The position numbers and the translations under genes are program-made. From a virus, in the IMG/VR virus record IMGVR_UViG_3300010375_000058, positions 1 through 20,231 of that record: 20,231 nt of DNA, one strand, 5' to 3'. Below the pieces are notes generated by a model. That model made no database searches and was not told where the DNA came from. It was given only the letters and a program-made list of their open reading frames with translations. How positions within the stretch are numbered: position 1 is the stretch's first letter; each line of letters opens with the position of its first letter. Positions 4,848 through 17,818 of the stretch are shown here, piece after piece.

Positions 4848-5113
4848 CAGACCGATGCTCCGGTCGCATCACACCACACGGTCGGATTCCGGCTCTTCAC
4901 CCAGACAGGTTTTCCCAACGTGGTGTCAAAATAGGTCTGTCCGATGTAGAGCGGAATGCGAGAACTGTCGACCGGTCTCGACGTGGTTGCGCCGCTCTGC
5001 CCGACAGGACGCAGCCAGTAATTGACACTCTCGATCCACGATTGCCACAGAGAAGTGAATCTTCCCTGTGAATCGGTAACACGATTGTCGGTTGGAATCG
5101 CGGACAGACTCAT
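4847..5113 (-). CDS. Small tail-associated hypothetical protein (88 aa)
   Basis: This 88-residue protein follows the gp10-like gene with overlap (ATGA) and shares one base with the hydroxylase start. Residues 10-40 contain 'VTDSQGRFTSLWQSWIESVN', and the C-terminal half has 'PLYIGQTYFDTTLGKPVWV' followed by 'WCDATG'. The 'GQxYFDTTLGKPxW...W.DATG' pattern is one I know from ends of phage tail fibre or head-fibre proteins and from small phage structural proteins. There is no enzymatic motif, signal peptide or membrane segment. It could be a small tail or fibre-attachment component; that role comes from the C-terminal pattern and from its position next to the tail hub gene. Confidence 0.75.
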   Translation of the reverse strand: MSLSAIPTDNRVTDSQGRFTSLWQSWIESVNYWLRPVGQSGATTSRPVDSSRIPLYIGQTYFDTTLGKPVWVKSRNPTVWCDATGASV

Positions 5114-6567
5114 GCGGCTGCCCTCGTTACTTTCTGTCTGAGCTTGATGGCCCCTTCCGTAATCACAAACTTTACCGGATCACTCATCCGGATCTTCCAT
5201 GTGGCATCCCGGGTCGATCCGAAACGGCGCCAGATCGCGCGCGTAAGATACTGACCGACCCCTCCCAGAGACACCCAGCGCTCGGCTGACCACGTACGGC
5301 CGTTATCCTTGGAGTACTGAAGCATTATCTGAGGGTTGGACCCCTGGCCTGTCTGAAGACCTACGCCGGTCTCCATATCCAGATAAAGCATGGGGATACG
5401 AACCCGGTTGAAAGATGACAGGATGTGACGGGTAGACACTTCCCGGATGATGGTCTGTCCGTTGTCTGTGTACTGATTAGCTGACATCGTGTAGACCTGA
5501 TTCGTCGCGTAGTCCGAAATCAGAGTCTGACCGGCGTAGTAAGTCGACAAATTTCCCCAATGCCGGGTTGGAGTAACAGAGGGACCTGTCTGAACTTCCG
5601 ACCAAAGATTAGTGGCCGTGTCATAAAGGAATGACCGGTTGGCATTCGGGAATGTGCACTGATAGAACTTGTGCGTATCCGTTCCGTACACCATGCATAC
5701 AGCATCTGACACGGTAGAGAATGAGTTGATGATGTTCTCTATGTCCGCATCAGAGATCACCTGGGCATTGAATCCGTTCAACTGAACAAACTGAACCTGT
5801 CCTTCCCGATTCTGAGCCAGGAAGATGATGGTCTGATTGACACGGCCCCTGGAAAACACCGCAGCCAATCCGTATTCATTGGTAGCTGACGTGATCGGAG
5901 CGAATGGAACCGGTGTTGCTCCGGTAGGAGCCCAATACTCCGTGTGAAGTTGGCAAAACGCGATGAGATTTCCTGACAGATTATCAACCGCGACAATTCC
6001 GTCGGAGTATTGAGATGCGGCAGCAAACGCAAGGGAGTTCCACGTGGAACCGTCATTCGCGTTTGAAACCCAGAAGTTCTGTGTCCCGGGTTGTTCGGCA
6101 ACAAAGAAGTTTGACACGAATGTCAGTGTTCTAGCCCCGTTTGGAAAAGACGCACCGATGGTCGTGAAAGTCGATGACGCTGGCGTATATATATAACCCG
6201 ATACGCCATCAGCTACCAACACCTGGGTGAATCCTGCATTGATTGCGATGGATACATTTCCGGCGGATGATCCTGTGAGTGACGCCGTGAACAATGCGGA
6301 CCCTGAAGCGGATACCGACTGGAACTGGTTATACGTGACTACATACAGTGAGGACTGAGTTCCCAACCATCCTCGGACCGGTAATCCTACAGGCGTGCTC
6401 AACTGGAACGCAGGGGACAGACCGGGCGTCCCATAACAGGCGATTTTCGTTTTATCGCCGTCCTTTCTCTGCTCGAAATAGCAATTGAGCCTGCGCTGAA
6501 CGGTAACCACGGCGCTCTTGGAACGAGTGCTTGCTCCAAACAACGGGACTACCTTGAGCGTAATCAC
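5110..6567 (-). CDS. P22 gp10-like packaged-DNA stabilisation / tail hub protein (485 aa)
   Basis: I place the start at the GTG at 6567, which overlaps the TGA of the gp4-like gene by four bases (GTGA) and is preceded by GAGG about eight bases upstream. An in-frame ATG at 6732 lies deep inside the gp4-like gene and would add an implausible leader. The 485-aa protein begins VITLKVVPLFGASTRSKS and is beta-rich throughout, with recurring blade-like units such as 'SSLYVVTYNQ', 'GNLIAFCQLHTEYW', 'TIIFLAQNREG' and 'DTHKFYQCTFPN', and a C-terminal 'QYSKDNGRTWSAERWVSLG'. This is the pattern of the P22 gp10 family, which forms the beta-propeller tail hub that plugs the portal after packaging. The preceding gene is gp4-like, the partner of gp10 in P22. 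P22 gp10 is of similar size (about 470 aa). Confidence 0.87.
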   Translation of the reverse strand: MITLKVVPLFGASTRSKSAVVTVQRRLNCYFEQRKDGDKTKIACYGTPGLSPAFQLSTPVGLPVRGWLGTQSSLYVVTYNQFQSVSASGSALFTASLTGSSAGNVSIAINAGFTQVLVADGVSGYIYTPASSTFTTIGASFPNGARTLTFVSNFFVAEQPGTQNFWVSNANDGSTWNSLAFAAASQYSDGIVAVDNLSGNLIAFCQLHTEYWAPTGATPVPFAPITSATNEYGLAAVFSRGRVNQTIIFLAQNREGQVQFVQLNGFNAQVISDADIENIINSFSTVSDAVCMVYGTDTHKFYQCTFPNANRSFLYDTATNLWSEVQTGPSVTPTRHWGNLSTYYAGQTLISDYATNQVYTMSANQYTDNGQTIIREVSTRHILSSFNRVRIPMLYLDMETGVGLQTGQGSNPQIMLQYSKDNGRTWSAERWVSLGGVGQYLTRAIWRRFGSTRDATWKIRMSDPVKFVITEGAIKLRQKVTRAAA

Positions 6568-7595
6568 GGATTGTCCTCGTTTGCCTGGAAGTACAGCGAT
6601 GTGGTTTCCACATCCGCTTGGCGTGCCATTGCCACGGATTCCCGATAGTTCAGGTCGGAACTGGAATCCCACTCCGCGTCGAACATGGGGACAATTTCTC
6701 GTGAGAGCCCCCATGACAAAGCTCGGTACCACTGCTGCGGATACTCAAAGTTGTCGCCCGGATTGACGATGTCCATCACCGGACGCAGGTACACACAGTG
6801 GATACGCTTGGTCACATCCTGAGCACCAGCCACATCAGTGTAAAAACGACCTCCTCCGGTAATCACCGGACTGTACTGGTCTGATCCGATCTGGCTCTCG
6901 TAGTACCAGGCGGTCGGATCTCCCAGATAGGTCGGCATTGCTTTGGTCGGAAGGTTCTCGTAGTCCTGCAACGTCATCACATTCAGAGAAATATCGTTGT
7001 TCTGAGAATCCCGTAGAACGGCCGTAACGATCGCCAGAGGCCTCTGGGCTTTTACCGTGTAGTTCCACACATAGGAATTCGAGGCCGCCGTGACACCGGC
7101 AGGAAGCACCGCATTCATCGTTACGGTGCCGGCACCTGAATTTATACTGGCGACAGTCGAGGAGAAGATATCTCCGCTGGAAACTTGCACAACAACAAAG
7201 TCTCCAGTTGTGAAATTTCCGACTTTCCCTGCTCCAAAATTGAGCACGGCTGATCCAGCCGAAGTTGTTCCGGAAAGTTGCTGCTGTCCGAAATTCGCAT
7301 TCGGAAGAGCTGCGCATCCTCCAGCCCAGTTATCACCTGTAGGTCCGAGCTGATAGACGCCCTGAGTTGAAGATAGAAACAGATCCCCCCTTTGCCGCGT
7401 CCACATCTTCAGGCCTGGAGCGAAGTCCTGCGTACCCATCCATTGCTTGATGAGCATGTTGAGCTTTCGCTGGCAGTCGATGAACTCTTGAGCGGTGGGG
7501 ACCTCGGCTTCTCCGATCGCTCCGATATTGAGCATCGCCTCTCGGATCACATCCGTAGCGGTGACAGTGAAGGAGAATGAGTTGGAAAGCGCCAT
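6564..7595 (-). CDS. P22 gp4-like head-tail adaptor / tail accessory factor (343 aa)
   Basis: The N-terminus (TDVIREAMLNIGAIGEAEVP, then 'QRKLNMLIKQWM') is the helical bundle typical of gp4-type adaptors, which bind the portal ring and connect it to gp10. The C-terminus returns to a helical domain with 'NFEYPQQWYRALSWGLSREI' and 'DVETTSLYFQ'. Between them, about residues 100-190 form a Gly/Ser/Thr/Val-rich beta domain (FTTGDFVVVQVSS, SINSGAGTVTMNAVLPAG). That makes it about twice the length of P22 gp4 (166 aa); long forms with such an insert occur in other podoviruses. The ATG at 7595 directly follows the TAA of the methyltransferase-glycosyltransferase gene and has a good site, GGTGGGAG, five bases upstream. 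It overlaps the gp10-like gene by four bases. Confidence 0.87.
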   Translation of the reverse strand: MALSNSFSFTVTATDVIREAMLNIGAIGEAEVPTAQEFIDCQRKLNMLIKQWMGTQDFAPGLKMWTRQRGDLFLSSTQGVYQLGPTGDNWAGGCAALPNANFGQQQLSGTTSAGSAVLNFGAGKVGNFTTGDFVVVQVSSGDIFSSTVASINSGAGTVTMNAVLPAGVTAASNSYVWNYTVKAQRPLAIVTAVLRDSQNNDISLNVMTLQDYENLPTKAMPTYLGDPTAWYYESQIGSDQYSPVITGGGRFYTDVAGAQDVTKRIHCVYLRPVMDIVNPGDNFEYPQQWYRALSWGLSREIVPMFDAEWDSSSDLNYRESVAMARQADVETTSLYFQANEDNP

Positions 7596-9185
7596 TTACG
7601 CTCCCACCACCTGAAGCATAGGCTTTCTGGCCTTTCCCTTGAGTATTGCGGTCTGAATGGCATCCCAGGTCAGAGCGGGATGGATCTCCTCCATGCATAC
7701 CGCAACGCCCTTTTTATCGCCTTTTCGACAGTGCTCGAACGTGAAGTGCAGCATGTGACATGCTGGCGCTTCATTGTCTCCTCGGCCCGGGCAACTGACC
7801 TTGGGTGCCGAAAGAGAAACAGTGTTAGTCCAGTCGCGTGTCAGGTTGTTTCTCGTGGAATGAGACAGAAATACGATCTTCGGTTGCGGCAGACAGGCTG
7901 CAGCATTCATGACGCCCGTTTCGGCGCCGACGAGCACGTCAGCTTGCTCGAGGAAAGCGAGCGTCTGTCGGATCGACCACTTTCCGCTGGTGCGATGAAC
8001 CCGCGGCTCCTCTTCCCAACCCGATTCAAGTTCCGCGCACTCAGGTCCACCGGTCAGGACAACATGCACGTCAGGATAGGAGATCATCAGCCGGGCGACG
8101 ATCTCATCCAGATATGGATAGGTCTTGTGCATGCGGGAAGAGCCTGAGAGCTGCCAGAGCAGGACGGTCTTGCCCATGGTGGCGCGCATCTGCTTCGCCC
8201 AGCGCTTCTCCTCGTCCGTCGCGTAGAACCGGACATCGATATTATCCGGGATTCCCGAGAGCTCGTGAGCGTGCTGCAGGTAGTTCACATTCATGTATTT
8301 GTGGCGCAGGGCCGGCGGCCATTCGTGCTGCACACGACCGGGCATCGCGAGAAATGAGCCCTCGACCGATTCGGACAGGTTCACGAACTTGTCGAACTTC
8401 TGCTTCCAATATGCCCAGTACTCACCCAGTTGGGCGTTCGGAACCTGATCCTTGTCCTGCAAAATGTGGCGATCTATGTTGGGATCATGCGAGACCACAT
8501 CGCATCCGGGGGGAGAGGAGAAGAGCGTGACGTGATAACCCTGACGCTTGAGGCCGGCGAATACGCTGGAGGCCTGCATGAGGTCTCCGAAGGCTCCGTA
8601 TCGGATAACAGCCACGGATTTCTCCGGGCGTGTGCGCTCCTGATACGACAGGTCGCGGCCGACGCTGGTCTTCTGGAACACGAAATACAGCGAATACTCA
8701 TCGTCCTGATCCCTCACCTGGTAGTCGACGAGGTCGAATCCGTCGGGCATCGCCTCCAGCACGCGCGCCTGATTCACGTTCCATTTGTGATCCGCATTCG
8801 CTCCAGGCTCTCCGAGCTTCGGATACTGATTCTCATCAGGCAGATACAGCAGCAGATATCCGCCTTGTTTGACAACACGCAGCCACTCTTTGAGCACAGC
8901 AGGCACGAGTTCGTAGGGGTAGTGCTCGAGAAGATGGGAGGAGAAGGCGAAGTCGAATGAGCCGGTGGCAAAGATCGACAGGTCTTCTGCGGGGCAGCGG
9001 ATGTCTGGCCTGATCAGATGACCGAAAAGCTCCTGATCACGACAACTGTCTATGCCGATGAAGTGATCGAAGGTTTTCTGGATGCCGCATCCGAGATCGA
9101 TACCCTTTCCACGAGTGTAGGGGACGATCTCCCAGCGGATCTTGCGTGATTCAAAGCCCTGGCGGGCATGCGGATCCCATGTCAT
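7596..9185 (-). CDS. Methyltransferase-glycosyltransferase (GT9-like) fusion protein (529 aa)
   Basis: Two enzyme domains are in one frame. Residues about 1-175 form a class I SAM methyltransferase: motif I 'GIDLGCG' (28-34), 'FDFAFSSHLLEHY' (77-89), and 'VLKEWLRVVKQGGYLLLYLP' (97-116), as in methyltransferase type 11. From about 189 on the sequence matches the ADP-heptose/GT9 glycosyltransferase plan: 'VAVIRYGAFGDLMQASSVF' (191-209), second Rossmann half from 340 (VLLWQLSGSSRMHKTYPYLD), 'VHVVLTGGPE' (373-382) and 'VLVGAETGVMNAAACLPQPK' (417-436), where family members usually have DTGxxHxA; here Asp is Glu422 and His is Asn. Four Cys near the C-terminus (465, 476, 486, 497) could bind a metal. 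It lies between small virion genes and the gp4-like gene and is preceded by a copy of the repeated AACCGGTAGAAGC element. The acceptor could be a virion protein, host LPS or DNA; the sequence does not say which. Confidence 0.87.
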   Translation of the reverse strand: MTWDPHARQGFESRKIRWEIVPYTRGKGIDLGCGIQKTFDHFIGIDSCRDQELFGHLIRPDIRCPAEDLSIFATGSFDFAFSSHLLEHYPYELVPAVLKEWLRVVKQGGYLLLYLPDENQYPKLGEPGANADHKWNVNQARVLEAMPDGFDLVDYQVRDQDDEYSLYFVFQKTSVGRDLSYQERTRPEKSVAVIRYGAFGDLMQASSVFAGLKRQGYHVTLFSSPPGCDVVSHDPNIDRHILQDKDQVPNAQLGEYWAYWKQKFDKFVNLSESVEGSFLAMPGRVQHEWPPALRHKYMNVNYLQHAHELSGIPDNIDVRFYATDEEKRWAKQMRATMGKTVLLWQLSGSSRMHKTYPYLDEIVARLMISYPDVHVVLTGGPECAELESGWEEEPRVHRTSGKWSIRQTLAFLEQADVLVGAETGVMNAAACLPQPKIVFLSHSTRNNLTRDWTNTVSLSAPKVSCPGRGDNEAPACHMLHFTFEHCRKGDKKGVAVCMEEIHPALTWDAIQTAILKGKARKPMLQVVGA

Positions 9186-9191
9186 GGACCC

Positions 9192-9207
9192 GCTTCTACC
9201 GGTTCAG
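9192..9207 (-). promoter_or_regulatory. Start-associated repeat, copy 1
   Basis: On the minus strand this reads CTGAACCGGTAGAAGC and ends six bases before the ATG at 9185. The 13-base core AACCGGTAGAAGC also lies just before the starts at 15384 and 17581. It sits in the short gap after the TGA at 9217-9219 and contains the palindrome ACCGGT. The AGAAG part is only a poor Shine-Dalgarno match, so simple ribosome binding does not explain the longer conserved block. Confidence 0.7.
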
Positions 9208-9216
9208 AAACCGAAG

Positions 9217-9585
9217 TCAAATTCGGTCGAGCAGATTCCCACGTTCGACGAATCCGACATCGGACCCCGACTTTGCCTCTCCGTAGAAGGTATCCACGTG
9301 CTCGGCGGTATAGGCATCGTCGGTTGGCTTTACGTCGAATCGCTTGTATCCGTTCTTGACGGCTGGTTCGTTCCAGTCTTTCGTCACATCGGTTTCTCCC
9401 GACATCACCCGGGGGATTGCCGGGTTGTCGATGATCTGCTGATCTCCGATGTTGTCGCCGGGCGGCAAACAATTGAAGTAGGACGGCGCCGACTTGGATC
9501 GGCGCGCACTGGAAGGCTCAACCCACTCGTGGTTCCCCTTCTTGTCGGGGAATTCAACCTGAAACTTTTCCTGGATCAGGCCCAT
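9217..9585 (-). CDS. Hypothetical virion-cluster protein, paralogue of its neighbour (122 aa)
   Basis: I place the start at the ATG at 9585, which overlaps the TGA of the preceding gene by one base (TGATG), the junction type used repeatedly in this genome, with GGTGG upstream. A GTG at 9594 would add three residues but lacks a good site. The protein is hydrophilic, with no signal peptide or membrane segment. It contains 'FNCLPPGDNIGDQ', nearly identical to 'FNQLPPGDNIGEQ' in the gene just upstream, followed in both by a short Ile/Asp/Asn stretch. That suggests two tandem relatives. The rest (DVTKDWNEPAVKNGYKRFDV, YGEAKSGSDVGFVERG) is not recognised. Position after the capsid gene suggests a small head or head-tail structural protein; the function is unknown. 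Confidence 0.75.
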   Translation of the reverse strand: MGLIQEKFQVEFPDKKGNHEWVEPSSARRSKSAPSYFNCLPPGDNIGDQQIIDNPAIPRVMSGETDVTKDWNEPAVKNGYKRFDVKPTDDAYTAEHVDTFYGEAKSGSDVGFVERGNLLDRI

Positions 9586-9854
9586 CAGGTCCACCCATCG
9601 CCCGGATAACCCATATCGGTCACGGTCTTGACCTTCATGGAGTCGGTCCGCTTGATATCCGCCACTGACTGCTCTCCGATGTTATCTCCCGGTGGAAGCT
9701 GGTTGAAGACGTGGCCTGAAAGGCTTGTCGGGGTCACGCTCTGACCCATTGGCGTGCCCTTCTTATCAAGGTAGCCGGTGTCCTTGATACCGGCACGATC
9801 AAGCACCTCACCGCCGCTTGCCGGAAAAGTGCCCTCATCTGGATACTTCGCCAT
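9585..9854 (-). CDS. Hypothetical virion-cluster protein, paralogue of its neighbour (89 aa)
   Basis: The ATG at 9854 has a clear ribosome site (GGGGAAAGAG) and follows the stop of the 130-aa gene by ten bases. The 89-aa product (MAKYPDEGTFPASGGEVLDR...) is hydrophilic and Gly/Asp/Pro rich. Residues about 50-63 hold 'FNQLPPGDNIGEQSV', shared with the next gene. It ends GYPGDGWT, and its TGA overlaps the ATG of that gene. No known domain is recognised and no Cys is present. It probably belongs to the head or head-tail set because it lies between the capsid protein and tail genes, but nothing in the protein proves this. Confidence 0.75.
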   Translation of the reverse strand: MAKYPDEGTFPASGGEVLDRAGIKDTGYLDKKGTPMGQSVTPTSLSGHVFNQLPPGDNIGEQSVADIKRTDSMKVKTVTDMGYPGDGWT

Positions 9855-9864
9855 CTCTTTCCCC

Positions 9865-10257
9865 TTACTGAGTCACATTCGCAAGCGGGGTGATCACCGT
9901 CTCGATGACACCTGCCAGCGTCAAGGTCGCGTCCGTCCCCTTTACCACGTAGTACGTGTCACCCTGCGCCAGATTCGCCGCACTGCCGGGCAAATAGTTG
10001 GAGAATACGGTCGCGGCCGACCCGGTGGTACCCAGACCATAGGTGGTGGTCGTGGTGCCGGAAATCTGGATGAGACTGGCCACATCCGCGGACGTGCTCG
10101 CCACCTGGGGTTTCAGGGTTACCGACTTGACAGCCATTGCCGTGAACGCGATGAACTTCGGAACCGATGCCGCACCGGATCCCGCAGCAATCGCGAAGGA
10201 ATCGTTGTGAACCGAGGTGTACGCCGGATGGTCGTACGCCATGTTCTTGGTCGCCAT
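9865..10257 (-). CDS. Small Ala/Thr-rich putative head structural protein (130 aa)
   Basis: The start is taken as the ATG at 10257 (MATKNMAYDH), with GGAGAG about six bases upstream; a TTG two codons earlier is less likely. The 130-aa product is rich in Ala, Thr, Ser, Val and Gly and alternates beta-type segments (KFIAFTAMAVKSVTLKPQVA, DTYYVVKGTDATLTLAGVIE), with no membrane helix, Cys or catalytic motif. It comes right after the major capsid gene, where many phages carry a head decoration or stabilisation protein of about this size and composition. That role is an inference from position and composition only. Confidence 0.72.
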   Translation of the reverse strand: MATKNMAYDHPAYTSVHNDSFAIAAGSGAASVPKFIAFTAMAVKSVTLKPQVASTSADVASLIQISGTTTTTYGLGTTGSAATVFSNYLPGSAANLAQGDTYYVVKGTDATLTLAGVIETVITPLANVTQ

Positions 10258-10337
10258 ACTCAACTCTCCGTGGGCCGCCTCCCGGCCGTATTGCGCCTGA
10301 TGTCACGCGGGGGCAGGCCCGCCCTGACCGGCTTTAT
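10258..10337 (-). other. 80-base intergenic region with two short GC hairpins
   Basis: This is one of the longest gaps in the head module. On the minus strand, after the capsid stop, GGGC-GGGCCT-GCCC (10311-10324) can form a 4-bp stem. Further on, GGCCG-GGAGG-CGGCC (10273-10287) is a perfect 5-bp stem whose loop is GGAGG, 16 bases before the start of the next gene. Neither has a following T run, so they do not look like ordinary intrinsic terminators. They may affect mRNA stability or translation of the downstream gene. Confidence 0.4.
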
Positions 10338-11318
10338 TTACGCCTGACTGTCCCACTTCACGATACGGGCGTTGCCCGCGGCGGAAGTGCTCGCGTGCAC
10401 GATGCCCATGCCTCCGAGGTAGTACCACGCGACGCCCTTGGATCGTCCGTAGTCAGATGGAATCTTGCCGCGCATCTCTTCCGGCACGGCAATCGCCTCC
10501 GCCACCGTGTCATTGCCAAAGAAGAATATCCAGTCGGACTTTCCGTTGGTCCAGGTGGTCTGGGTGATGCCGTCTGTGCCGGTACCCTTGGCGATGTTGG
10601 TCTGCTCGACGTATCGCACGTTCTCATACCGGCCGATCTCACCGTTCATGATGAGCTGCAGTCCGGTTGACGAATACTGGTGGATGGTCTCCAGGTTGTT
10701 TTTGAACGTGCGCAACGTCGTCGGCCAGGCGAGCGAGTAGTAGTCATCCGCCAGGTAAGCCGGAATGTTGCGCTCCTTCATGGTGTCCACGATCGATTTC
10801 GCGTGACCATTGTTGTAGGCGACGTTATTCGTGCCGGTGACCGTTCCGTTGGTGTAGAGCTGGATGGCTGCGGTGTCGGTGCCGGATGAGGCAATCGCCC
10901 GCAACAGCGTCTGGTTGAACTGCGTCCATGCCAGTCGGTCCAGGAACTTCACGCAGTCGTTCTTCAGCACCTTTTCAATGATCTGGGTCACCGGGAACTT
11001 CGACAGATTGTCGAGCTTCCCCGAGAAGGGAACGCTGTTTGCCGCTTCGGTGATGGTCAACGTGCCCTGAACGACCGTGAAGTTGGTCTCAGGGACAGTG
11101 TTTGTCTCTACCAGCACCGCGCCTGCGGTCGCGACATCCGAATACACGTCGAAGGTGAAGATATCGCCCTTCTTCTTGCCTTGCTGAGAGGCGTCGTGCA
11201 CGTCGCAGAACTGACGGAACTTGGTGAGCGGCTGTACCGCACCACGGAGCACATTGGAGAGCTGGCGGCTGTACAAGTAGCCACCGAGTGAATTGACTGC
11301 CCAAACCTGACCGGCCAT
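10338..11318 (-). CDS. Major capsid protein, N4 gp56 family (326 aa)
   Basis: The 326-aa sequence matches the plan of N4-gp56-type major capsid proteins (HK97 fold). The N-terminal helix region is 'YLYSRQLSNVLRGAVQPLTK'; then 'GKKKGDIFTFDVYSDVATAG' and 'NFTVVQGTLTITEAANSVPF' give the E-loop/P-domain strands. A long spine helix region follows (IIEKVLKNDCVKFLDRLAW), then 'NIPAYLADDYYSLAWPTTLR' and a C-terminal 'AWYYLGGMGIVHASTSAAGN', characteristic of the family. There is no N-terminal prodomain, consistent with a separate scaffold gene just upstream. The ATG at 11318 has TGGAG upstream and follows a stem-loop in the short gap after the scaffold stop. It should assemble the icosahedral head around the scaffold. 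Confidence 0.9.
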   Translation of the reverse strand: MAGQVWAVNSLGGYLYSRQLSNVLRGAVQPLTKFRQFCDVHDASQQGKKKGDIFTFDVYSDVATAGAVLVETNTVPETNFTVVQGTLTITEAANSVPFSGKLDNLSKFPVTQIIEKVLKNDCVKFLDRLAWTQFNQTLLRAIASSGTDTAAIQLYTNGTVTGTNNVAYNNGHAKSIVDTMKERNIPAYLADDYYSLAWPTTLRTFKNNLETIHQYSSTGLQLIMNGEIGRYENVRYVEQTNIAKGTGTDGITQTTWTNGKSDWIFFFGNDTVAEAIAVPEEMRGKIPSDYGRSKGVAWYYLGGMGIVHASTSAAGNARIVKWDSQA

Positions 11319-11332
11319 CGTGTAACTCCAGC

Positions 11333-11354
11333 CACACGATGGCGGTGTCGTGTG
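11333..11354 (-). promoter_or_regulatory. Stem-loop between scaffold and capsid genes
   Basis: The minus strand reads CACACGA, an 8-base loop CACCGCCA, then TCGTGTG: a perfect 7-bp stem. It begins one base after the scaffold TAG and ends 14 bases before the capsid ATG, just upstream of TGGAG. It is not followed by a T run, so a role in RNA processing, stability or reinitiation control is more likely than full termination. This is where a phage must raise capsid output above scaffold. Structure is seen; function is inferred. Confidence 0.5.
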
Positions 11355-11355
11355 T

Positions 11356-12402
11356 CTACTGTTTTCTGACGATCGCTGTGGGGAGATGTCGAACGGCGCC
11401 GCCCTGATGCCGGGCCCGGGCCATCTTGTCGATCACGCTCTCCACCGGTTCCTCCTCTTCGTCCTCCTCTCTCACCACCTGCCGACCGCCGGCTTGTGGG
11501 ATTGGAAGGACCGAGGCCTTGCGCTCGAGCTTTGGATTCGGGGGAGTCGCGGACTTCGTCTTCTCAGAGAGCCAGCCTTTGACCTTGTCACCAGCCTTTT
11601 TCAGGCGGGCCTGGTAGCCGAGAGAAGGCTCATCTCTTGCGAGCCTCGTGTCTTCGGCGACGACCAGTTGGTAGGCCATCGGATCGCTGACGATGTCTTT
11701 GTACTCACCGCGAAACCAATTCACGGCGTCCCGGAAACTCATGCGATCGTCGACAGCGGTGAGCACGTCCGGAGTTACTGTGGATGGTGCCTTGAGCCGC
11801 TGTGCGATCTTTCTGATCGCTTCCGGATCCCCCTGGAGAGCCGAGGTGAGGGTGTCCTCGGTCACGTCTTCCTCGTGACTCGCCGGGCCGTCTTGCGATG
11901 GGCCCCGCGCCAGACTTGCTTCTACCGCTTTTTTGGCCGTTTGCAAATACTCATCGGCACTTTCGACCTTCTGCGCACGCTCCAGGACTTCCTCTTCGGT
12001 GAGCTCCACTTCCTTGCCGTTGACTTTGAGTCTGTACTTCTTCGGTTCAGCGCGAACCGCACCTGCTTCCTGATCCTCGCGGGCCGCGCGCTCGTTGGCT
12101 TCGGTCTCCAGCCTCTGTCGCTCTTCCTCGGCTTCAGCCTCAGCGCGCGCCGCTGCCGCCTCCGTCGGGTCATCTTCGATGAGTTTGTCCCCGTCGAAAT
12201 CGATGGTCTGGCGGTCTTCCTGCTCGTCTGCGCGATTGGCAATCGCGTTGCGTCGATCGACCTGTTCCTGATTCCGCGTGCCGATAGCCGCGGCAATCTG
12301 CCGATCATGCTCTTGAAGTTGCGTTTCTTTTTCTTCGCGCGACAGCGTCTCCGACTCACGTGCCTGAGCGTTGGCGTCAATGTCGGTTTTCTTTTTAGCC
12401 AT
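11356..12402 (-). CDS. Scaffolding / head morphogenesis protein (348 aa)
   Basis: This is a very hydrophilic, highly charged 348-aa protein. Residues 1-135 are almost entirely helical coiled-coil type (SREEKETQLQEHDRQIAAAI, EAAAARAEAEAEEERQRLET). A short domain 'KKYRLKVNGKEVELTEEEVL' follows, then a helical C-terminal half with basic stretches (ARLKKAGDKVKGWLSEKTK), an acidic run (EEDEEEEPVES) and a basic end. Low hydrophobicity, lack of Cys, acidic N-terminal part and location between portal and major capsid are the usual marks of a phage scaffolding protein. The ATG at 12402 has AGGAGA eight bases upstream and overlaps the preceding gene by eight bases. The role is inferred from composition and position, with good support from synteny. 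Confidence 0.83.
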   Translation of the reverse strand: MAKKKTDIDANAQARESETLSREEKETQLQEHDRQIAAAIGTRNQEQVDRRNAIANRADEQEDRQTIDFDGDKLIEDDPTEAAAARAEAEAEEERQRLETEANERAAREDQEAGAVRAEPKKYRLKVNGKEVELTEEEVLERAQKVESADEYLQTAKKAVEASLARGPSQDGPASHEEDVTEDTLTSALQGDPEAIRKIAQRLKAPSTVTPDVLTAVDDRMSFRDAVNWFRGEYKDIVSDPMAYQLVVAEDTRLARDEPSLGYQARLKKAGDKVKGWLSEKTKSATPPNPKLERKASVLPIPQAGGRQVVREEDEEEEPVESVIDKMARARHQGGAVRHLPTAIVRKQ

Positions 12403-12682
12403 CAGAATTCTCCTGCTTCAGTTGCTCGAGCGCCGATTGCCCTACATCGACAGCATCCTGAAGCCACGCGATAAAGTTGTCAGCCGTCAGCAATTTTCTC
12501 TGTATCGCCGCGATCTGAGCGGAATTGAAAGGGTCCGCCGATTTGAATTCCCGGATCGCCTGCTCGCTATGCTCGTTGGCACGACTGAGAAGATAGGATC
12601 CGATGTCGTCCTGAAGAAACAGCTCGACACGCCGGCCGAATTCCGCAACACGGACATTGGGCTCATCCTGATCAAGCGGCAT
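12395..12682 (-). CDS. Small conserved-type head-module protein (95 aa)
   Basis: The product is a 95-aa, mostly helical, acidic protein (MPLDQDEPNVRVAEFGRRVE...) without Cys, signal peptide or membrane segment. It starts eleven bases before the end of the portal gene and ends eight bases into the scaffold gene, so it is locked into the portal-scaffold-capsid transcript. The central segment 'SAQIAAIQRKLLTADNFIAW' and C-terminal 'ALEQLKQENSDG' are amphipathic helices. I do not recognise the family. Candidates are a portal-associated protein or a scaffold cofactor; nothing in the sequence separates these. Confidence 0.8.
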   Translation of the reverse strand: MPLDQDEPNVRVAEFGRRVELFLQDDIGSYLLSRANEHSEQAIREFKSADPFNSAQIAAIQRKLLTADNFIAWLQDAVDVGQSALEQLKQENSDG

Positions 12683-14720
12683 TTACAGGCTCCGGAGGAT
12701 TCATGGCCGCCTGATTGGACTGCTGATCGAGTGTCATGATGTGGTCGGCAAGCTTCAGCACTTTTTCATGCTCGTGCTCCCGACCCTGTTTCAGAAGATC
12801 GGTGAAATTCTTCTCACGCTGAGCGCGGAACTTCAGAATGTTTCCCTGCTCCTTGTCGCCGATCTTTGTCTTGTAGGCCTTCATGAGCTGCTGTAACTGC
12901 TGTTGCAGTTGGATCTTCTCGGGATCTCCTTGAGACAGGAACCGGGATCCATCCTGATAACCCGATAGCGCGAAGACTTCCTTATAGATTTCCGTGATGT
13001 TGATGCCCGGCGGCGGCTTTGCGGCAATCTTGGCAATGTTTCCCACGCCGAACACGAACCTCTGCAGCTTCATGGCTGGATCGGTCGCACCCATCCCCAC
13101 GTTGATCTGGGTCGTCAGCTCCTGTTCCAGAAGACTGTCGATCATCTGGTCAATGCCGAACTTCTGTCGGATCTTGGCCTTTTCTCCTGCCAGAGCGAGC
13201 ACCCGCTGATCGGTCTCGTAATTCTGCTCAAGGAGCACGAGTTGCCGCACCACCGGCAGCACGAACGTCTCGACGAACGTTTTCAGCATGTACTCCGTCA
13301 ACAGATTCGACGGAGTCTGCAGCGCAAGCATGGTGCGCTCGGACTCTCGGGGGGTTCTCTGCTGAGCTACCTGGAGTGGGTTGAAGTTTCCCAGCAGCTC
13401 ATCGAAGTTTCCTGTGATGCGATCTTCCTCGAGGTAGGCGGACTGTGTCACGTCAGTCCAGGCGCTCTCCTTCACATCCTTCTCAATGTCGTTGACCTGC
13501 GTGATGCCTCCAGGCACGTTGCGAATCAACGACGGAAGATCGACATTGGCGCCGCGCTTCACGTAGAAGCGCTTGTTCAAGACCAGCTTGACGTTGTCGT
13601 TGCGCTGGTTCCGGGTGTCGTTCAGGTCATCTTGCAGCCCGCGTCCGAGCTCTGGCACTGACATCGGCAATGCCTTGTGGGTTTCGAGGATGGCCTTGCC
13701 CATGACATACGGACGTTGACCGTGAAACACCGTCCGGACCAGAGGCCTTGGGTCTGTGAGCCGACGATCGGACTGCAGCGTGTACCACTCGACATCCGTA
13801 CCCTTGTAGCGGTGAATGTGCCGATGCACCCAGACGATGTCGTAATCCGAGATACGTGAGCGTGCGCGTGTCGGATCTTCGGCCAGACGCAGACGGGTCT
13901 GGCGTGTTGAGTTATTTTCCGAATCCATGTAGTACCGGAAGACACTGTCTGGATACCGTTTCCAGGTCTGTCCCTTTGGATCGGGCCGGGACATCCGATC
14001 CTTCACATCGCCTACGTACATCGGCATCAGGTGAATAACGTAGGGCGATGCATTTAGAGGATCGACCCAATCGGCTGCTGGGTGAAACCGTATGTTCTCC
14101 ATCGGGATCAAATCGATGCAGGGCCTGTCCTCCATGATCTGCATATCCTTGCCGCGGGCCACGAACCGCCAGTGGATATGGGCGATGCAGGCTGATTGAG
14201 TCTGTGCGTCTTGGAGCGCACCGCACACGATCTGGAACCAGGGAATGGTATGCGTGAGCCGATACTGGATGATCTGCTGCATCACCTCGGCGGAGACGCG
14301 CTGGGCCTGATCAGCCTGGTTGGCGGCCTGAATCGACACTGTATCGAGGTTCGAGAAGAAAGCCGCTGCCGCTGCTGCCTCGTTCTTTCGGATCACTGCG
14401 CGTGTCTTGGGGACGTACGAGTGTGAGCGCTTCCGGAAGACATCCATGTTGTACTTGGAGTCCTGAGGATGCTCGTTGTTGAAGGCCCGGAGCGAATCTT
14501 CCCACTTCTTGCGGTAGTTTGTATCGACGTAGGTGGTGGAATCCCGGAAGGCATCCTTGGCCATACGGTCCCAGTTGGGTCGACCGTCGCTGTCATCCTC
14601 TCCCGCATCGTCCGACAAGTCATCGTCTTCCTTGCCGGCGTACCAGAGTTCTGTATCCCCGCTGTCTGGATCGTGGATGTGCGGCGGGGTTATGCGTGGG
14701 TCGGTGACTTGCCAAGCCAT
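12672..14720 (-). CDS. Portal protein (682 aa)
   Basis: At 682 aa it has the size of large podoviral portal proteins (P22 gp1 is 725 aa). The N-terminal acidic region (KEDDDLSDDAGEDDSDG) precedes 'TNYRKKWEDSLRAFNNEHP' and 'TRAVIRKNEAAAAAAFFSN', typical of the portal wing. The central 'CIDLIPMENIRFHPAADWVD', 'WVHRHIH' and 'LPMSVPELGRGLQDDLNDTR' match the pattern near the portal crown and stem. 'RTPRESERTMLALQ' and a long Gln-rich helical C-terminus (IQLQQQLQQLMKAYKTKIGD) correspond to the barrel. It sits between terminase and scaffold/capsid, as expected for the dodecameric DNA channel at the head vertex. The ATG at 14720 directly follows the TAG of a 28-codon gene and has GAGG nine bases upstream. 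Confidence 0.92.
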   Translation of the reverse strand: MAWQVTDPRITPPHIHDPDSGDTELWYAGKEDDDLSDDAGEDDSDGRPNWDRMAKDAFRDSTTYVDTNYRKKWEDSLRAFNNEHPQDSKYNMDVFRKRSHSYVPKTRAVIRKNEAAAAAAFFSNLDTVSIQAANQADQAQRVSAEVMQQIIQYRLTHTIPWFQIVCGALQDAQTQSACIAHIHWRFVARGKDMQIMEDRPCIDLIPMENIRFHPAADWVDPLNASPYVIHLMPMYVGDVKDRMSRPDPKGQTWKRYPDSVFRYYMDSENNSTRQTRLRLAEDPTRARSRISDYDIVWVHRHIHRYKGTDVEWYTLQSDRRLTDPRPLVRTVFHGQRPYVMGKAILETHKALPMSVPELGRGLQDDLNDTRNQRNDNVKLVLNKRFYVKRGANVDLPSLIRNVPGGITQVNDIEKDVKESAWTDVTQSAYLEEDRITGNFDELLGNFNPLQVAQQRTPRESERTMLALQTPSNLLTEYMLKTFVETFVLPVVRQLVLLEQNYETDQRVLALAGEKAKIRQKFGIDQMIDSLLEQELTTQINVGMGATDPAMKLQRFVFGVGNIAKIAAKPPPGINITEIYKEVFALSGYQDGSRFLSQGDPEKIQLQQQLQQLMKAYKTKIGDKEQGNILKFRAQREKNFTDLLKQGREHEHEKVLKLADHIMTLDQQSNQAAMNPPEPVNAA

Positions 14721-14807
14721 CTAAGGACGCCTCAGCCAATCAACGAACTCAAGGATCGGATACAAACATAATCCAACCGAAAATGCTCCAGCAATCAGCG
14801 TGAACAT
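14721..14807 (-). CDS. 28-aa single-pass membrane microprotein
   Basis: This short frame was found by translating the gap between two genes. It reads MFTLIAGAFSVGLCLYPILE then FVDWLRRP. The ATG at 14807 comes two bases after the TGA of the 124-aa gene, and its TAG directly abuts the portal ATG, so it fills the gap exactly as do the other coupled genes here. Residues 2-22 form one hydrophobic segment followed by D-W-L-R-R-P; the positive end suggests a cytoplasmic C-terminus. The ribosome site is imperfect (GGAGA, 13 bases upstream), so coupling to the upstream stop is likely. It could be a lysis accessory, an envelope-interacting peptide or a portal-associated peptide. A chance open frame cannot be excluded, but the fit is very tight. 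Confidence 0.6.
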   Translation of the reverse strand: MFTLIAGAFSVGLCLYPILEFVDWLRRP

Positions 14808-14809
14808 CG

Positions 14810-15184
14810 TCAATTGAAGGTCTCCGGCCGGCGCGGTTTGAACGTCGAGGGGATCACCGGATCACTACCGTCCCACGCACCGCGTTTGTATCCGAACGCT
14901 TCCAGCATCGTGCCGCCGGCCATAACAGCGTTCCTGGCCAGCTCTGAGGCGCTGTAGCTGTCCAGGTGCTTGAGCACGAATCCGAAGCCATCCCGTGAGA
15001 GATGCTGGCGCACAGCCGCTGATATGAGCCCGTGGCGCACGACCAGCACGCGCCCTTGGAAGCTCACCTGCCATAGATGCATGGGATAGTGCTGGCACAA
15101 CGTTTCCAGCACCTGCTGTGCCTTGTAGAGGTCGAGCGCTTCGTTGGGATCACCGCGCTCAAGGATGAGTTGACCGTCGCTCAC
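14810..15184 (-). CDS. Hypothetical protein in packaging module (124 aa)
   Basis: The 124-aa product (MSDGQLILERGDPNEALDLY...) begins with a helical segment, has a strand-rich middle (HLWQVSFQGRVLVVRHGLIS), a helix 'SELARNAVMAGGTMLEAFGY' and a basic, Pro-containing tail (STFKPRRPETFN). There is no membrane helix or catalytic signature. The ATG overlaps the stop of the 67-aa gene by four bases (ATGA), and its TGA lies two bases before the 28-aa membrane gene. I do not recognise the family. Position between large terminase and portal points to packaging or head assembly, and that is the only support. Confidence 0.8.
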   Translation of the reverse strand: MSDGQLILERGDPNEALDLYKAQQVLETLCQHYPMHLWQVSFQGRVLVVRHGLISAAVRQHLSRDGFGFVLKHLDSYSASELARNAVMAGGTMLEAFGYKRGAWDGSDPVIPSTFKPRRPETFN

Positions 15185-15384
15185 GGACCTGTACCCGGGC
15201 GACGATAGATACCCGTCTGGTACATGTCAGTGCTGTCGAAGCGACGACCATCCGAGAACTGATAGATCCCATGGTCGGGTTGGCGGAACTCAGCCCCCCA
15301 GGCGCGCTCGGCCATCTCGAGCCACGAGAAGCTGCGATAGGTGACAGGGCGACCGAGAGTTGGGGGTATGACGTAGACAGCCAT
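15181..15384 (-). CDS. Hypothetical small protein (67 aa)
   Basis: This encodes 67 residues (MAVYVIPPTLGRPVTYRSFS...) rich in aromatic residues and Arg, with 'PDHGIYQFSDGRRFDSTDMY' in the second half and no Cys or membrane segment. It starts 28 bases after the terminase stop. The gap carries copy 2 of the AACCGGTAGAAGC element, whose 3' end is five bases before the ATG. Its TGA overlaps the ATG of the next gene (ATGA). The protein family is not recognised. The conserved element supports the chosen start and suggests this gene is controlled in the same way as the genes starting at 9185 and 17581. Confidence 0.78.
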   Translation of the reverse strand: MAVYVIPPTLGRPVTYRSFSWLEMAERAWGAEFRQPDHGIYQFSDGRRFDSTDMYQTGIYRRPGTGP

Positions 15385-15389
15385 GGCTC

Positions 15390-15402
15390 GCTTCTACCGG
15401 TT
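15390..15402 (-). promoter_or_regulatory. Start-associated repeat, copy 2
   Basis: On the minus strand the 13-base core AACCGGTAGAAGC lies five bases before the ATG at 15384, between the terminase stop (15412-15414) and the 67-aa gene. It is preceded by GGCCGGCGA rather than CTG, so identity with copies 1 and 3 is limited to the core; copies 1 and 2 share one further G at the 3' side. Confidence 0.68.
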
Positions 15403-15411
15403 TCGCCGGCC

Positions 15412-17037
15412 TCAAACAACGTCTGGCTCGATGTCTTCGATCTGCACCGGTGCCGACGGAGGCATGGGCTCCATGTCATAGATGCGTGAGAGCGCGTCCA
15501 CCACGTCTACTCGGTCTCCAAACGGAAAGAAGCTGATCTGGAGCTTCAGGCGCTCGGTCAGATCGTAAATCTGCTTGTCTCCGTCCATCTTCCGGATACG
15601 CCGGCTGATGCGATATTCATACCCCGCATCTCTCATGCGCTGCTGAACGCTGGTAAGGTTTTCAGGGTCGGTGGCATAGGGAACATAGAACCTATGCGTG
15701 CGCAGGTCAGGGGTGAGCCGCTGCACGCGGTCTGTCTTGCTGCCGAGTCCATCGTGAGGCCACTCCAGTTCCACGATCTCGAAATAGCCACCCTCGTTCG
15801 GCACGCGCATCTGGAGTTCAAAGAAGTCCAGATCCGCAATCGCACCATACCGCTCATATCCGACCTTGACGCCCTGGACACCAGGCTCTCGGCGCCAGGT
15901 GTGGTAGAGATCGCGCATCCGGCGCCAGCGCTCAAGGAGGTCCATTTTGTGATCGAACCCATCTAGCAGATATTTGTTGCCCGCCGCATCCAGTCCCAAC
16001 ACCACCATGGCGGTATGGGCTGAATCCTTCTTCTTGGACCTACCCGGGTCGATCATGATGAATACCATCAGAGTTTCGGGTCGGCACTCGTAAATACGCA
16101 CATCCTGGATATTGAACATGCGTTGCTTGCCGGCGAGCGGCGAGCAAAGGTTCTGGCATGAGAATGTCGCATCACCCTGCTTGGTCAATTTCTCCTGGAG
16201 ATAAGCCTTGGACCACAGCACCGGCTCACCATCCAGTGAGCCGTCGACCGTACAGGCATACTTACGCAGCACTGCGGCGCCGCGATCGATGATGGCCTGG
16301 TAGGTGTCGGCGTGGTGATAGCGGGTACCGATGATCTGCTCGTGTCCACCCTCAGCACCCAGATTGTTCGACAACTCCCAGGCCTCAGTCGTCTTCTGGA
16401 TCTGCTCTGGTGTGTTCACGCTCTCAGGGGTGACCACATCGTCGTAGATACGCAGCTTGAAGTGCCGGCTTGTCGGCTGGCCGTCGACCAAACCATGGGC
16501 TTCGATGGTGGCTTCCTTGGGGTTTCCCTGGCGCTTGACCACGATCCCGCCATCCAGTGACCACGACGGCGCCTCTTTCTCCGGATCCGACCACAGGATC
16601 TCGGGAAACAGGTCTTTCAGGTCCTCGTTGGCCTCGAACTCCCGCTTCACCTGCGAGAGAAATGCCTTGGCGATCGGCTTGGTGTGCGAGAAAAGGCCTA
16701 TCGTGATCTCAGGGTCTCGCAGGATCTCCTGAATCGCACCCGCAAAAGTGATGATGGTCGACTTGTAGTGCTCGCGGGCCCAGATGTCGATGTATCCGTA
16801 GGGAGCCTGCTCCACCTCACGACAGCGCTGATACAGCCATTCGCTTCGGTCCGCATCTAGCCGATGCAGTACTTGAGTGAGCAAGAAGAAGCGATCGACG
16901 AGACAGAGATCGGAATCGGGGTTGGTCTGCCTGGCCTCACTCCAGACGATGTAGCGACTACTGTACGGTGCGGTCCACAGCTTCTGTTGGAGATCGCGCA
17001 GCGGCAGCGGCTGCCTCTTTCTCAAGGCGCTCGGCAT
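15412..17037 (-). CDS. terL: Terminase large subunit (541 aa)
   Basis: The packaging motor and headful/end-cutting nuclease. The ATPase half shows a terminase-type Walker A 'AREHYKST' (about 87-94), followed by 'ITFAGAIQEILRDPEITIGL', a Walker B 'LRIYDD' (195-200) and the coupling-type segment 'EQIIGTRYHHADTY' (233-246). The nuclease half begins with 'VFIMIDPGRSKKKDSA' (325-340), whose Asp330 is the first metal ligand, and ends with 'DRVDVVDALSRIYD', which carries the last conserved Asp. Length 541 aa is normal. It overlaps the small terminase gene by 80 bases and lacks a strong ribosome site, so coupled translation is likely. It should act with the small subunit at the portal to pump DNA into the prohead. 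Confidence 0.93.
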   Translation of the reverse strand: MPSALRKRQPLPLRDLQQKLWTAPYSSRYIVWSEARQTNPDSDLCLVDRFFLLTQVLHRLDADRSEWLYQRCREVEQAPYGYIDIWAREHYKSTIITFAGAIQEILRDPEITIGLFSHTKPIAKAFLSQVKREFEANEDLKDLFPEILWSDPEKEAPSWSLDGGIVVKRQGNPKEATIEAHGLVDGQPTSRHFKLRIYDDVVTPESVNTPEQIQKTTEAWELSNNLGAEGGHEQIIGTRYHHADTYQAIIDRGAAVLRKYACTVDGSLDGEPVLWSKAYLQEKLTKQGDATFSCQNLCSPLAGKQRMFNIQDVRIYECRPETLMVFIMIDPGRSKKKDSAHTAMVVLGLDAAGNKYLLDGFDHKMDLLERWRRMRDLYHTWRREPGVQGVKVGYERYGAIADLDFFELQMRVPNEGGYFEIVELEWPHDGLGSKTDRVQRLTPDLRTHRFYVPYATDPENLTSVQQRMRDAGYEYRISRRIRKMDGDKQIYDLTERLKLQISFFPFGDRVDVVDALSRIYDMEPMPPSAPVQIEDIEPDVV

Positions 17038-17272
17038 AACTCAACCGACGCTCGATAGTCTTGTGAATCTCCTTGAACTCGCGCGGCTTGCCATCCAGGG
17101 TATTGCGTACCTCGGTAATGGCCCATGCATCGCCGTTTTCTGCAGCCTCCAGAACTTTCTCAGCAATCCGATGCAGACGCGCACGATCTTTTGCCAAACC
17201 TCTGCGTATCGCACCTTCCCATAATCTCGGCTTTGCCGCGTTCCGGTTACCTTTCGGAGCTCCTCCCGCCAT
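16958..17272 (-). CDS. terS: Terminase small subunit-like protein (104 aa)
   Basis: The 104-aa basic, helical product starts 'MAGGAPKGNRNAAKPRLWEG', a start typical of small phage packaging proteins, followed by 'RLHRIAEKVLEAAENGDAWA' and 'EVRNTLDGKPREFKEIHKTI' and an Ala-rich C-terminal helix. It sits directly before the large subunit and overlaps it by 80 bases, the usual gene order for small and large terminase. The small subunit recognises the phage packaging site and regulates the motor. The ATG at 17272 has no visible Shine-Dalgarno site (upstream GTTGAATACAAC), and no other in-frame start is suitable. Assignment rests on N-terminal pattern, size and position. Confidence 0.8.
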   Translation of the reverse strand: MAGGAPKGNRNAAKPRLWEGAIRRGLAKDRARLHRIAEKVLEAAENGDAWAITEVRNTLDGKPREFKEIHKTIERRLSYAERLEKEAAAAAARSPTEAVDRTVQ

Positions 17273-17298
17273 GTTGTATTCAACTGTAAATCAATGAT

Positions 17299-17361
17299 CT
17301 ATAGGGTGGGTTCTTCTTCCGACTGTTCGTCATCTTCCTGGACTGGACGACCGTCAATCAT
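17299..17361 (-). CDS. Possible 20-aa acidic microprotein or frameshift tail
   Basis: After the 75-aa gene a second frame gives MIDGRPVQEDDEQSEEEPTL and a TAG. Its ATG overlaps the end of the 75-aa gene by eight bases, with GGCGG a few bases upstream. The peptide is strongly acidic, which is unusual for random sequence in this genome. The same frame stays open upstream for 104 codons, so it might also be reached by a ribosomal frameshift near the end of the 75-aa gene. Evidence is weak; it may be chance. Confidence 0.25.
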   Translation of the reverse strand: MIDGRPVQEDDEQSEEEPTL

Positions 17362-17581
17362 CGCCGCCATTGGGGCCATATACGCTGTAGCCGGTACGAG
17401 GACCGTAGGATCCGCGGCCCGTGTACATCTCAAGCTTCCGAGCCATGTCCTTGTTGGAGCTATGGCCGATCGTGGCGTCCAGATCATAGTCGCCGGTGAC
17501 CTTGGGAACGATGTGCCAGGCCTTGGGAGCCACATCATGGCATCCCTGGTGGGCAAGCTTATGCATGTCGACGTAACGCAT
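17354..17581 (-). CDS. Hypothetical small protein (75 aa)
   Basis: This encodes 75 residues (MRYVDMHKLAHQGCHDVAPK...), His/Asp/Gly/Tyr rich, ending in 'RGSYGPRTGYSVYGPNGGDD'. An overlapping longer frame (17299-17613) exists, but its product is Pro/Thr/Arg-rich low-complexity and would start inside the upstream gene. I prefer this frame because the repeated element AACCGGTAGAAGC ends six bases before its ATG, exactly as at the two other start-associated copies. It stands between the zinc-ribbon gene and the small terminase. The function is unknown; there is no membrane segment. Confidence 0.65.
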   Translation of the reverse strand: MRYVDMHKLAHQGCHDVAPKAWHIVPKVTGDYDLDATIGHSSNKDMARKLEMYTGRGSYGPRTGYSVYGPNGGDD

Positions 17582-17587
17582 GGAGAT

Positions 17588-17603
17588 GCTTCTACCGGTT
17601 CAG
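17588..17603 (-). promoter_or_regulatory. Start-associated repeat, copy 3
   Basis: On the minus strand this reads CTGAACCGGTAGAAGC, identical over 16 bases to copy 1, and ends six bases before the ATG at 17581. The TGA inside it is the stop codon of the upstream zinc-ribbon gene, so the element overlaps the end of that gene. Confidence 0.7.
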
Positions 17604-17818
17604 GAGGCCGCACTCAAGGCGCGACGTGGATTAAGCTTCGTACTGCGCCCTCCCCGCTTTCGGCGTTCGTCCGTAAGCGATTGACCCGTGATGTCCGAAA
17701 GCCGAGGCACCATGGCAGCAACCACGAATCGCGTCTGGCAGTGACAGCAGGCAAAACTGATGTGGATGGTCTCCGCCTGGCATTTCGAGCAATACAGACG
17801 TGATAGGCGCATAAACAT
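17600..17818 (-). CDS. Small zinc-ribbon protein (72 aa)
   Basis: The N-terminal half has two knuckles, C10-S-K-C13 and C24-C-H-C27, separated by ten residues, which is the spacing of a small zinc ribbon. The C-terminal half is basic (DERRKRGGRSTKLNPRRALS) and could contact nucleic acid. The ATG at 17818 follows the TGA of the 46-aa gene with no gap; AAGAAG lies just upstream. Its TGA falls in copy 3 of the repeated element. An overlapping frame (17631-17822) lacks any motif and is taken as a shadow. Small zinc ribbons in phages often act as transcription or anti-repressor factors or are remnants of nucleases; the specific role here is unknown. Proximity to the repeated element makes a regulatory role worth testing. 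Confidence 0.75.
   Translation of the reverse strand: MFMRLSRLYCSKCQAETIHISFACCHCQTRFVVAAMVPRLSDITGQSLTDERRKRGGRSTKLNPRRALSAAS

What the first reader, a model, noticed from the sequence alone, without database searches (positions are those of the whole stretch)
9192..17603. A 13-base element repeated in the same orientation 5-6 bases before three start codons
AACCGGTAGAAGC (minus strand) occurs at 9192-9204, 15390-15402 and 17588-17600. Copies 1 and 3 match over 16 bases (CTGAACCGGTAGAAGC). The ends lie 6, 5 and 6 bases before the ATGs at 9185, 15384 and 17581. Chance recurrence of an exact 13-mer in 20 kb is well under 1%, and the fixed spacing makes chance less likely still. The three genes are unrelated and far apart, so duplication of genes does not explain it. 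The layout resembles start-associated sequences of cluster K mycobacteriophages. It could be a phage-specific translation signal, a target for a regulatory RNA or protein (note the palindrome ACCGGT), a promoter giving near-leaderless mRNAs, or a seam used in cassette exchange.
Basis: partly seen in the sequence, partly recalled or inferred. Interest (0 to 1): 0.78.

Follow-up and report, generated by a model that had tools for sequence, protein, structure and literature searches.

The report
Repeated phage promoter abutting start codons
A short DNA element repeated in front of three genes of an uncultured phage is most likely the core of one promoter used three times, placed so close to the genes that their messages would begin at the start codon; relatives carry a similar promoter at one of these genes, and an RNA 5'-end map would settle it.

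Summary
AACCGGTAGAAGC occurs three times on the minus strand at the stated places, 5-6 nt before the ATGs of three unrelated genes. A fourth copy (12 of 13) lies inside the scaffold-position gene, away from any start.

The best reading is not a ribosome signal but the -10 half of a sigma-70-type promoter. In each copy TAGAAG lies 16-17 bp downstream of a TTG-type -35 box (TTGACT, TTGTTT, TTGAGT; about 3e-5 by chance for the three) and 6-7 nt before ATG, so transcription should begin at or one base before the start codon (leaderless mRNA). Pairing to the anti-Shine-Dalgarno is unremarkable.

The 13-mer is not conserved in relatives; the layout is. Among 1,367 gene starts of related phages, -10 boxes 5-9 nt before the start concentrate at orthologs of one of the three genes, the small gene after the terminase (12/35 versus 10/1,332; p = 5e-15). 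There the box and a Shine-Dalgarno largely exclude each other (p = 0.002).

It is not a member of the cluster K start-associated sequences. Weak points: TAGAAG lacks the usual final T, AACCGG is unexplained, the host is unknown, only a 20-kb fragment exists, and there is no RNA evidence.

The parts
17612..17617 (-). -35-like box TTGAGT, copy 3
   Evidence: 17 bp upstream of TAGAAG
17588..17600 (-). 13-mer copy 3; -10-like TAGAAG at 17589-17594, 7 nt before the ATG at 17581
17354..17581 (-). g173, 75-aa conserved gene of unknown function upstream of the terminase genes
   Evidence: orthologs in 22 terminase loci, iterated set
15414..15419 (-). -35-like box TTGTTT, copy 2; overlaps the last codons of the terminase gene
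   Evidence: 17 bp upstream of TAGAAG
15390..15402 (-). 13-mer copy 2; -10-like TAGAAG at 15391-15396, 6 nt before the ATG at 15384
15181..15384 (-). g151, 67-aa conserved gene directly after the terminase; its orthologs carry -10 boxes adjacent to the start
9215..9220 (-). -35-like box TTGACT, copy 1; overlaps the stop codon of the preceding gene
   Evidence: 16 bp upstream of TAGAAG
9192..9204 (-). 13-mer copy 1; -10-like TAGAAG at 9193-9198, 7 nt before the ATG at 9185
7596..9185 (-). g76, methyltransferase plus GT9-like protein
   Evidence: Pfam; orthologs
11918..11930 (-). fourth copy, 12 of 13 (AAGCGGTAGAAGC), inside the scaffold-position gene, about 600 bp before the capsid gene; possible internal promoter, ambiguous
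   Evidence: coding constraint
11941..11946 (-). -35-like box TTGCAA of the fourth copy; the TTG is a leucine codon of a conserved peptide

Best explanation
The three copies are the -10 end of one repeated sigma-70-type promoter: TTGnnn, then 16-17 bp ending in AACCGG, then TAGAAG, then 6-7 nt, then ATG. RNA polymerase would start at or within about one base of the ATG, giving leaderless mRNAs for g173, g151 and g76. The three promoters would divide the minus-strand structural genes into three units: terminase; portal, scaffold and capsid; and g76 with the head-closure and later genes. One near-identical promoter would tie their expression together. Shown: the sequence, the spacing and its statistics, and the conserved layout at g151 in relatives. 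Inferred: promoter activity, the transcription start, leaderless translation, the unit boundaries, and any role of AACCGG.
For: In a 60-nt upstream scan the best promoter in each of the three is TTGACT-16-TAGAAG, TTGTTT-17-TAGAAG and TTGAGT-17-TAGAAG (shuffle p 0.02, 0.035, 0.015). TTG lies 16-18 bp upstream of 3.25% of positions, so three of three is about 3e-5. Of 55 other viral contigs with the same 13-mer before an ATG only 4 have the TTG, near chance. TTGnnn-16/18-TANAN[T/G] occurs only four times on the minus strand, all at copies of the element, and never on the plus strand. In relatives TANANT 5-9 nt before the start occurs at 12/35 g151 genes versus 10/1,332 other starts (p 5e-15); with a TTG box 8/35 versus 4/1,332 (p 4e-11), mostly intergenic, e.g. 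TTGCGT-17-TATACT-7-ATG in L140 and TTGCTA-17-TACACT-7-ATG in L125. Near -10 and SD largely exclude each other there (2 SD/12 none versus 17/7, p 0.002). Promoter scores at p<=0.05 are frequent for g173 (8/25) and g151 (9/34), against 0-12% for most control families. The nearest relative found, L014, has TATAAG 8 nt before the g173 ATG and no SD. SD pairing of the three window genes is average.
Against: TAGAAG lacks the strongly conserved last T of the -10 box, and the standard consensus scan does not list these sites. The identity extends into the spacer (AACCGG), which a plain sigma-70 promoter does not need. The exact element is absent from relatives. Most relatives have an SD at g173 (21 of 25) and many at g76, and g76 relatives are only weakly promoter-enriched (3/29); neither g173 nor g76 shows the near -10 box, so the comparative support is for copy 2 only. 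Relatives are not fully independent samples. The group uses SD strongly overall. Host unknown; no RNA data.
Confidence: 0.66

Rival explanations
1. Start-associated translation signal, as proposed for SAS elements: the 13-mer acts in the mRNA, AGAAG serving as a weak Shine-Dalgarno or as a site for an RNA-binding protein or regulatory RNA.
For: Fixed 5-6 nt distance to ATG, AGAAG at SD distance; similar layout in cluster K and EF phages.
Against: Anti-SD pairing is average for random positions; the near-copy has no start codon; the -35 boxes at 16-17 bp would be coincidence (about 3e-5); orthologs of g151 use -10 boxes at this position and mostly lack an SD.
Confidence: 0.18
2. Binding site for a phage regulator (operator or stoperator) centred on AACCGGT, overlapping host promoters, so that a repressor or activator controls the three units together.
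For: The spacer block AACCGG is identical in the three copies although sigma-70 needs no such block; ACCGGT is a palindrome; 13-bp asymmetric, oriented repressor sites exist in cluster A mycobacteriophages.
Against: No regulator gene was recognised among the proteins scanned; few copies; fixed distance to ATG. Compatible with the promoter reading rather than opposed to it.
Confidence: 0.12
3. Recombination seam or recently copied intergenic cassette without regulatory function.
For: Identity is confined to a short block in gaps between genes.
Against: The fixed distances to both ATG and the TTG box are not expected of a seam; no longer flanking identity is seen around the copies.
Confidence: 0.04

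Closest known systems
Start Associated Sequences (SAS) and extended SAS of cluster K mycobacteriophages; SAS of Microbacterium cluster EF
   Same: 13-bp near-identical element in one orientation a few nt before several start codons (PMC3203893; PMC7302621); in Adephagia the extended SAS contains SigA-like promoters and a nearby gene is predicted leaderless (PMC11373665)
   Different: Different sequence, fewer copies, weak SD character; the 17-bp inverted repeats were not looked for systematically. Here the repeated block would itself be the -10 region rather than lie downstream of the promoter
-10 motif adjacent to ORFs: leaderless genes of Deinococcus-Thermus and mycobacteria
   Same: TANNNT-like box just before the start, no SD, -35 region enhancing (PMC12340547; PMC4633059)
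   Different: TAGAAG ends in G, the spacer block AACCGG is fixed, and the layout is limited to a few phage genes while the related phages mostly use SD
Operators and stoperators of cluster A mycobacteriophages (L5 type)
   Same: 13-bp asymmetric element oriented with transcription in short intergenic gaps (PMC9283540)
   Different: Consensus not enriched, fewer copies, fixed distance to start codons, no repressor recognised in the fragment

Membership tests
Sigma-70 (SigA-type) promoter | -35 and -10 hexamers 16-18 bp apart | tested here: met
   TTGACT-16, TTGTTT-17 and TTGAGT-17 to TAGAAG in the three copies
Sigma-70 (SigA-type) promoter | -10 box with T at the last position | tested here: not met
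   TAGAAG ends in G; a scan that demands the T does not list the sites. The sites are therefore called promoter-like, not consensus members
Sigma-70 (SigA-type) promoter | transcription starts about 7 nt downstream of the -10 box | not testable with these tools
   no RNA data
Leaderless gene | -10 box immediately upstream of the start codon | tested here: met
   6-7 nt from TAGAAG to ATG; same layout in g151 orthologs
Leaderless gene | no Shine-Dalgarno before the start | tested here: met
   no GGAG/GAGG/AGGA/AAGG core before the three starts; average pairing energy
Leaderless gene | mRNA 5' end at the start codon | not testable with these tools
   no RNA data
Cluster K SAS | consensus GGGATAGGAGCCC with up to two deviations | tested here: not met
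   matches with up to 3 mismatches are at chance number and none is one of the copies
Cluster K SAS | located immediately before start codons | tested here: inconclusive
   3 exact copies yes; the near-copy at 11918-11930 is inside a gene
Cluster EF SAS | consensus GGGAAAGGACCCC | tested here: not met
   no enrichment, no overlap with the copies
L5-type stoperator | consensus GGTGGMTGTCAAG (consensus from memory) | tested here: not met
   matches at chance number, none at the copies
L5-type stoperator | bound by a phage immunity repressor | not testable with these tools
   none recognised among the proteins scanned; the genome is incomplete

The most novel reading that the evidence does not exclude
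The element is a phage-specific promoter class in which a fixed AACCGG block next to a non-consensus -10 box (TAGAAG) is read by a phage-encoded activator or a modified polymerase. It would switch on the structural operons together as leaderless mRNAs, in a phage whose relatives mainly use Shine-Dalgarno starts.
Probability: 0.25. Interest if true: 0.58.

Novelty: new member of a known kind. Interest (0 to 1): 0.4.

Why it matters
Short repeats before phage start codons (SAS in clusters K and EF) are described in the papers read here as having an unclear role. Here a similar-looking element is better explained as a promoter abutting the ATG, which can be tested by 5'-end mapping. The comparison also finds a leaderless-type promoter recurring at one small gene after the terminase in phages that otherwise rely on Shine-Dalgarno starts, which points to selection for leaderless expression of that gene.

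Tried and rejected
A scan of viral contigs for the 13-mer 3-10 nt before an ATG gave 55 contigs with one match each; only 4 have the upstream TTG, so these look like chance matches. The exact element in relatives: only scattered matches with 1-2 mismatches, mostly not before starts. Repeated k-mers before ATGs in relatives were mostly coding repeats or SD sequences by inspection. SD pairing energy did not single out the three genes. Rfam: no match. Near DNA relatives among named phages: none. Host by capsid homology: 61-64% matches in Polaromonas, Pseudothauera and Methylophaga contigs, 48% in Methylobacter, about 50% in Vibrio and Escherichia phages; not decisive. Promoter-like sites inside g124 and scaffold genes of relatives were set aside because coding constraint can produce them. 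The fourth copy lies in a conserved peptide (ADEYL); TTG at its leucine is more frequent than usage predicts (22/51 versus 20%, p 1e-4, not corrected for relatedness), so an internal capsid promoter is possible but not claimed. SAS, EF and stoperator consensus scans were at chance.

Full report
What was checked. The window is the entire record, a 20,231-bp linear virus contig, with no near DNA match among named phages. Its minus strand encodes a podovirus-like structural module: terminase large subunit 15412-17037, a portal-position gene 12672-14720 (PHROG 'head-tail adaptor'), a scaffold-position gene 11356-12402 (assigned by position only), major head protein 10338-11318 and head closure 5110-6732. 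The 13-mer AACCGGTAGAAGC is present three times exactly as stated, and a 12-of-13 copy lies inside the scaffold-position gene. Five matches with up to two mismatches compare with 0.37 expected.

The anatomy. Aligned on TAGAAG, the copies read TTGACT-N16-TAGAAG-N7-ATG (copy 1), TTGTTT-N17-TAGAAG-N6-ATG (copy 2) and TTGAGT-N17-TAGAAG-N7-ATG (copy 3). A TTG lies 16-18 bp upstream of 3.25% of positions, so three of three has a chance of about 3e-5 (1.5e-4 if 15-19 bp is allowed). The bases after the -35 box are also alike (TCGGTT, GAGGCC, GCGGCC), and the distance between the two blocks varies by one base, as expected for separate -35 and -10 contacts. The pattern TTGnnn-N16-18-TANAN[T/G] occurs four times on the minus strand, all at copies of the element, and never on the plus strand. 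A matrix built from the three copies ranks the fourth at 22 bits, against 12.7 for the next site on either strand.

Relatives. The terminase and capsid proteins fetched 59 and 80 related viral loci. The exact 13-mer is not conserved there, but a promoter layout is, at one gene. Orthologs of g151, the small gene directly after the terminase, show TTGCGT-17-TATACT-7-ATG (L140), TTGCTA-17-TACACT-7-ATG (L125), TTGCAC-17-TATAGT-7-ATG (L138), TTGCGC-18-TACACT-8-ATG (L193) and others, many in gaps of 38 bp or more. Over 1,367 de-duplicated starts, TANANT 5-9 nt before the start is found at 12 of 35 g151 genes and 10 of 1,332 others (p 5e-15); with a TTG box (box distance 5-10 nt) 8 of 35 and 4 of 1,332 (p 4e-11). 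Within the g151 family, starts with a near -10 box mostly lack an SD (12 of 14) and starts without the box mostly have one (17 of 24), p 0.002. The set is de-duplicated but not corrected for phylogeny.

The other two genes. For g173, promoter scores at p<=0.05 occur in 8 of 25 orthologs, against 0-12% for most control families; two small control sets are higher (terS 3 of 12, head closure 1 of 6). The distance of the box from the start varies, 21 of 25 g173 orthologs carry an SD, and the strict near -10 test finds none. The nearest relative found, L014, has TATAAG 8 nt before the g173 ATG and no SD. For g76 only 3 of 29 orthologs score, with a box 20-30 nt upstream. The case for copies 1 and 3 therefore rests mainly on their identity with copy 2 and on their own -35 boxes.

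Why not a ribosome signal. The three window starts have no SD core, and their pairing with the anti-SD is average for random positions, although AGAAG sits at SD distance. Related phages clearly use SD, with a strong peak about 7 nt before starts. A near-copy without a start codon also fits a promoter better than a translation signal.

Mechanism proposed. RNA polymerase reads the TTG box and TAGAAG and starts at or one base before the ATG, so the mRNA is leaderless, as known from mycobacteria (PMC4633059) and Deinococcus (PMC12340547). Three such promoters would serve the terminase unit, the portal-scaffold-capsid unit and the unit that begins with g76. Activity, transcription start, unit boundaries and the role of AACCGG are inferred. 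The -10 box lacks its usual last T, so help from AACCGG, through an activator or an unusual host preference, is possible.

Known relatives of the idea. Cluster K and EF phages carry 13-bp start-associated sequences whose role is unclear (PMC3203893; PMC7302621); in Adephagia the extended version contains SigA-like promoters (PMC11373665). The window element does not match either consensus, nor the stoperator consensus (consensus from memory; the family is described in PMC9283540). It works like a leaderless promoter; it is not shown to be a member of the SAS families.

Uncertain points. The fourth copy lies in a conserved peptide (ADEYL), so its TTG may be coding; the excess of TTG at that leucine in relatives (22 of 51 versus 20% usage, p 1e-4) hints at an internal promoter for the capsid gene but is not corrected for relatedness. 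The host is unknown: capsid and portal relatives occur in Vibrio and Escherichia phages and in proteobacterial contigs, and some weaker terminase and capsid matches are Streptomyces phages.

Noticed in passing
window 7596-9185 (-): A 529-aa protein with an N-terminal methyltransferase domain (Methyltransf_11, E 1.3e-8) and a C-terminal GT9-like domain (just above the Pfam cut-off), conserved in many relatives among the structural genes; L058, L059 and L200 match only from residue 186 on.
   Followed up: partly
L170:15786-16997 and L140:3057-4346: The small g151 gene appears within longer ORFs (about 404 and 430 aa), and in L170 it lies before g76 instead of after the terminase, so it may move and fuse.
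   Followed up: no
L140:8843, L168:8844, L193:5211, L154:8789 and others: Promoter-like TTGNNN-18-TANANT sites recur inside g124, about 60-150 bp before the scaffold gene, in about 15 relatives; coding constraint was not excluded.
   Followed up: partly
L026:12366-12410 and L063:8634-8678: Before the capsid gene an inverted repeat (GTGGCGAG ... CTCGCCAC) flanks the Shine-Dalgarno region, possibly an RNA hairpin that affects capsid translation.
   Followed up: no
window 440-1564 (+): A 374-aa ORF on the strand opposite to the structural genes, without a PHROG match (E<=0.001) or a Pfam match (E<=0.1).
   Followed up: no
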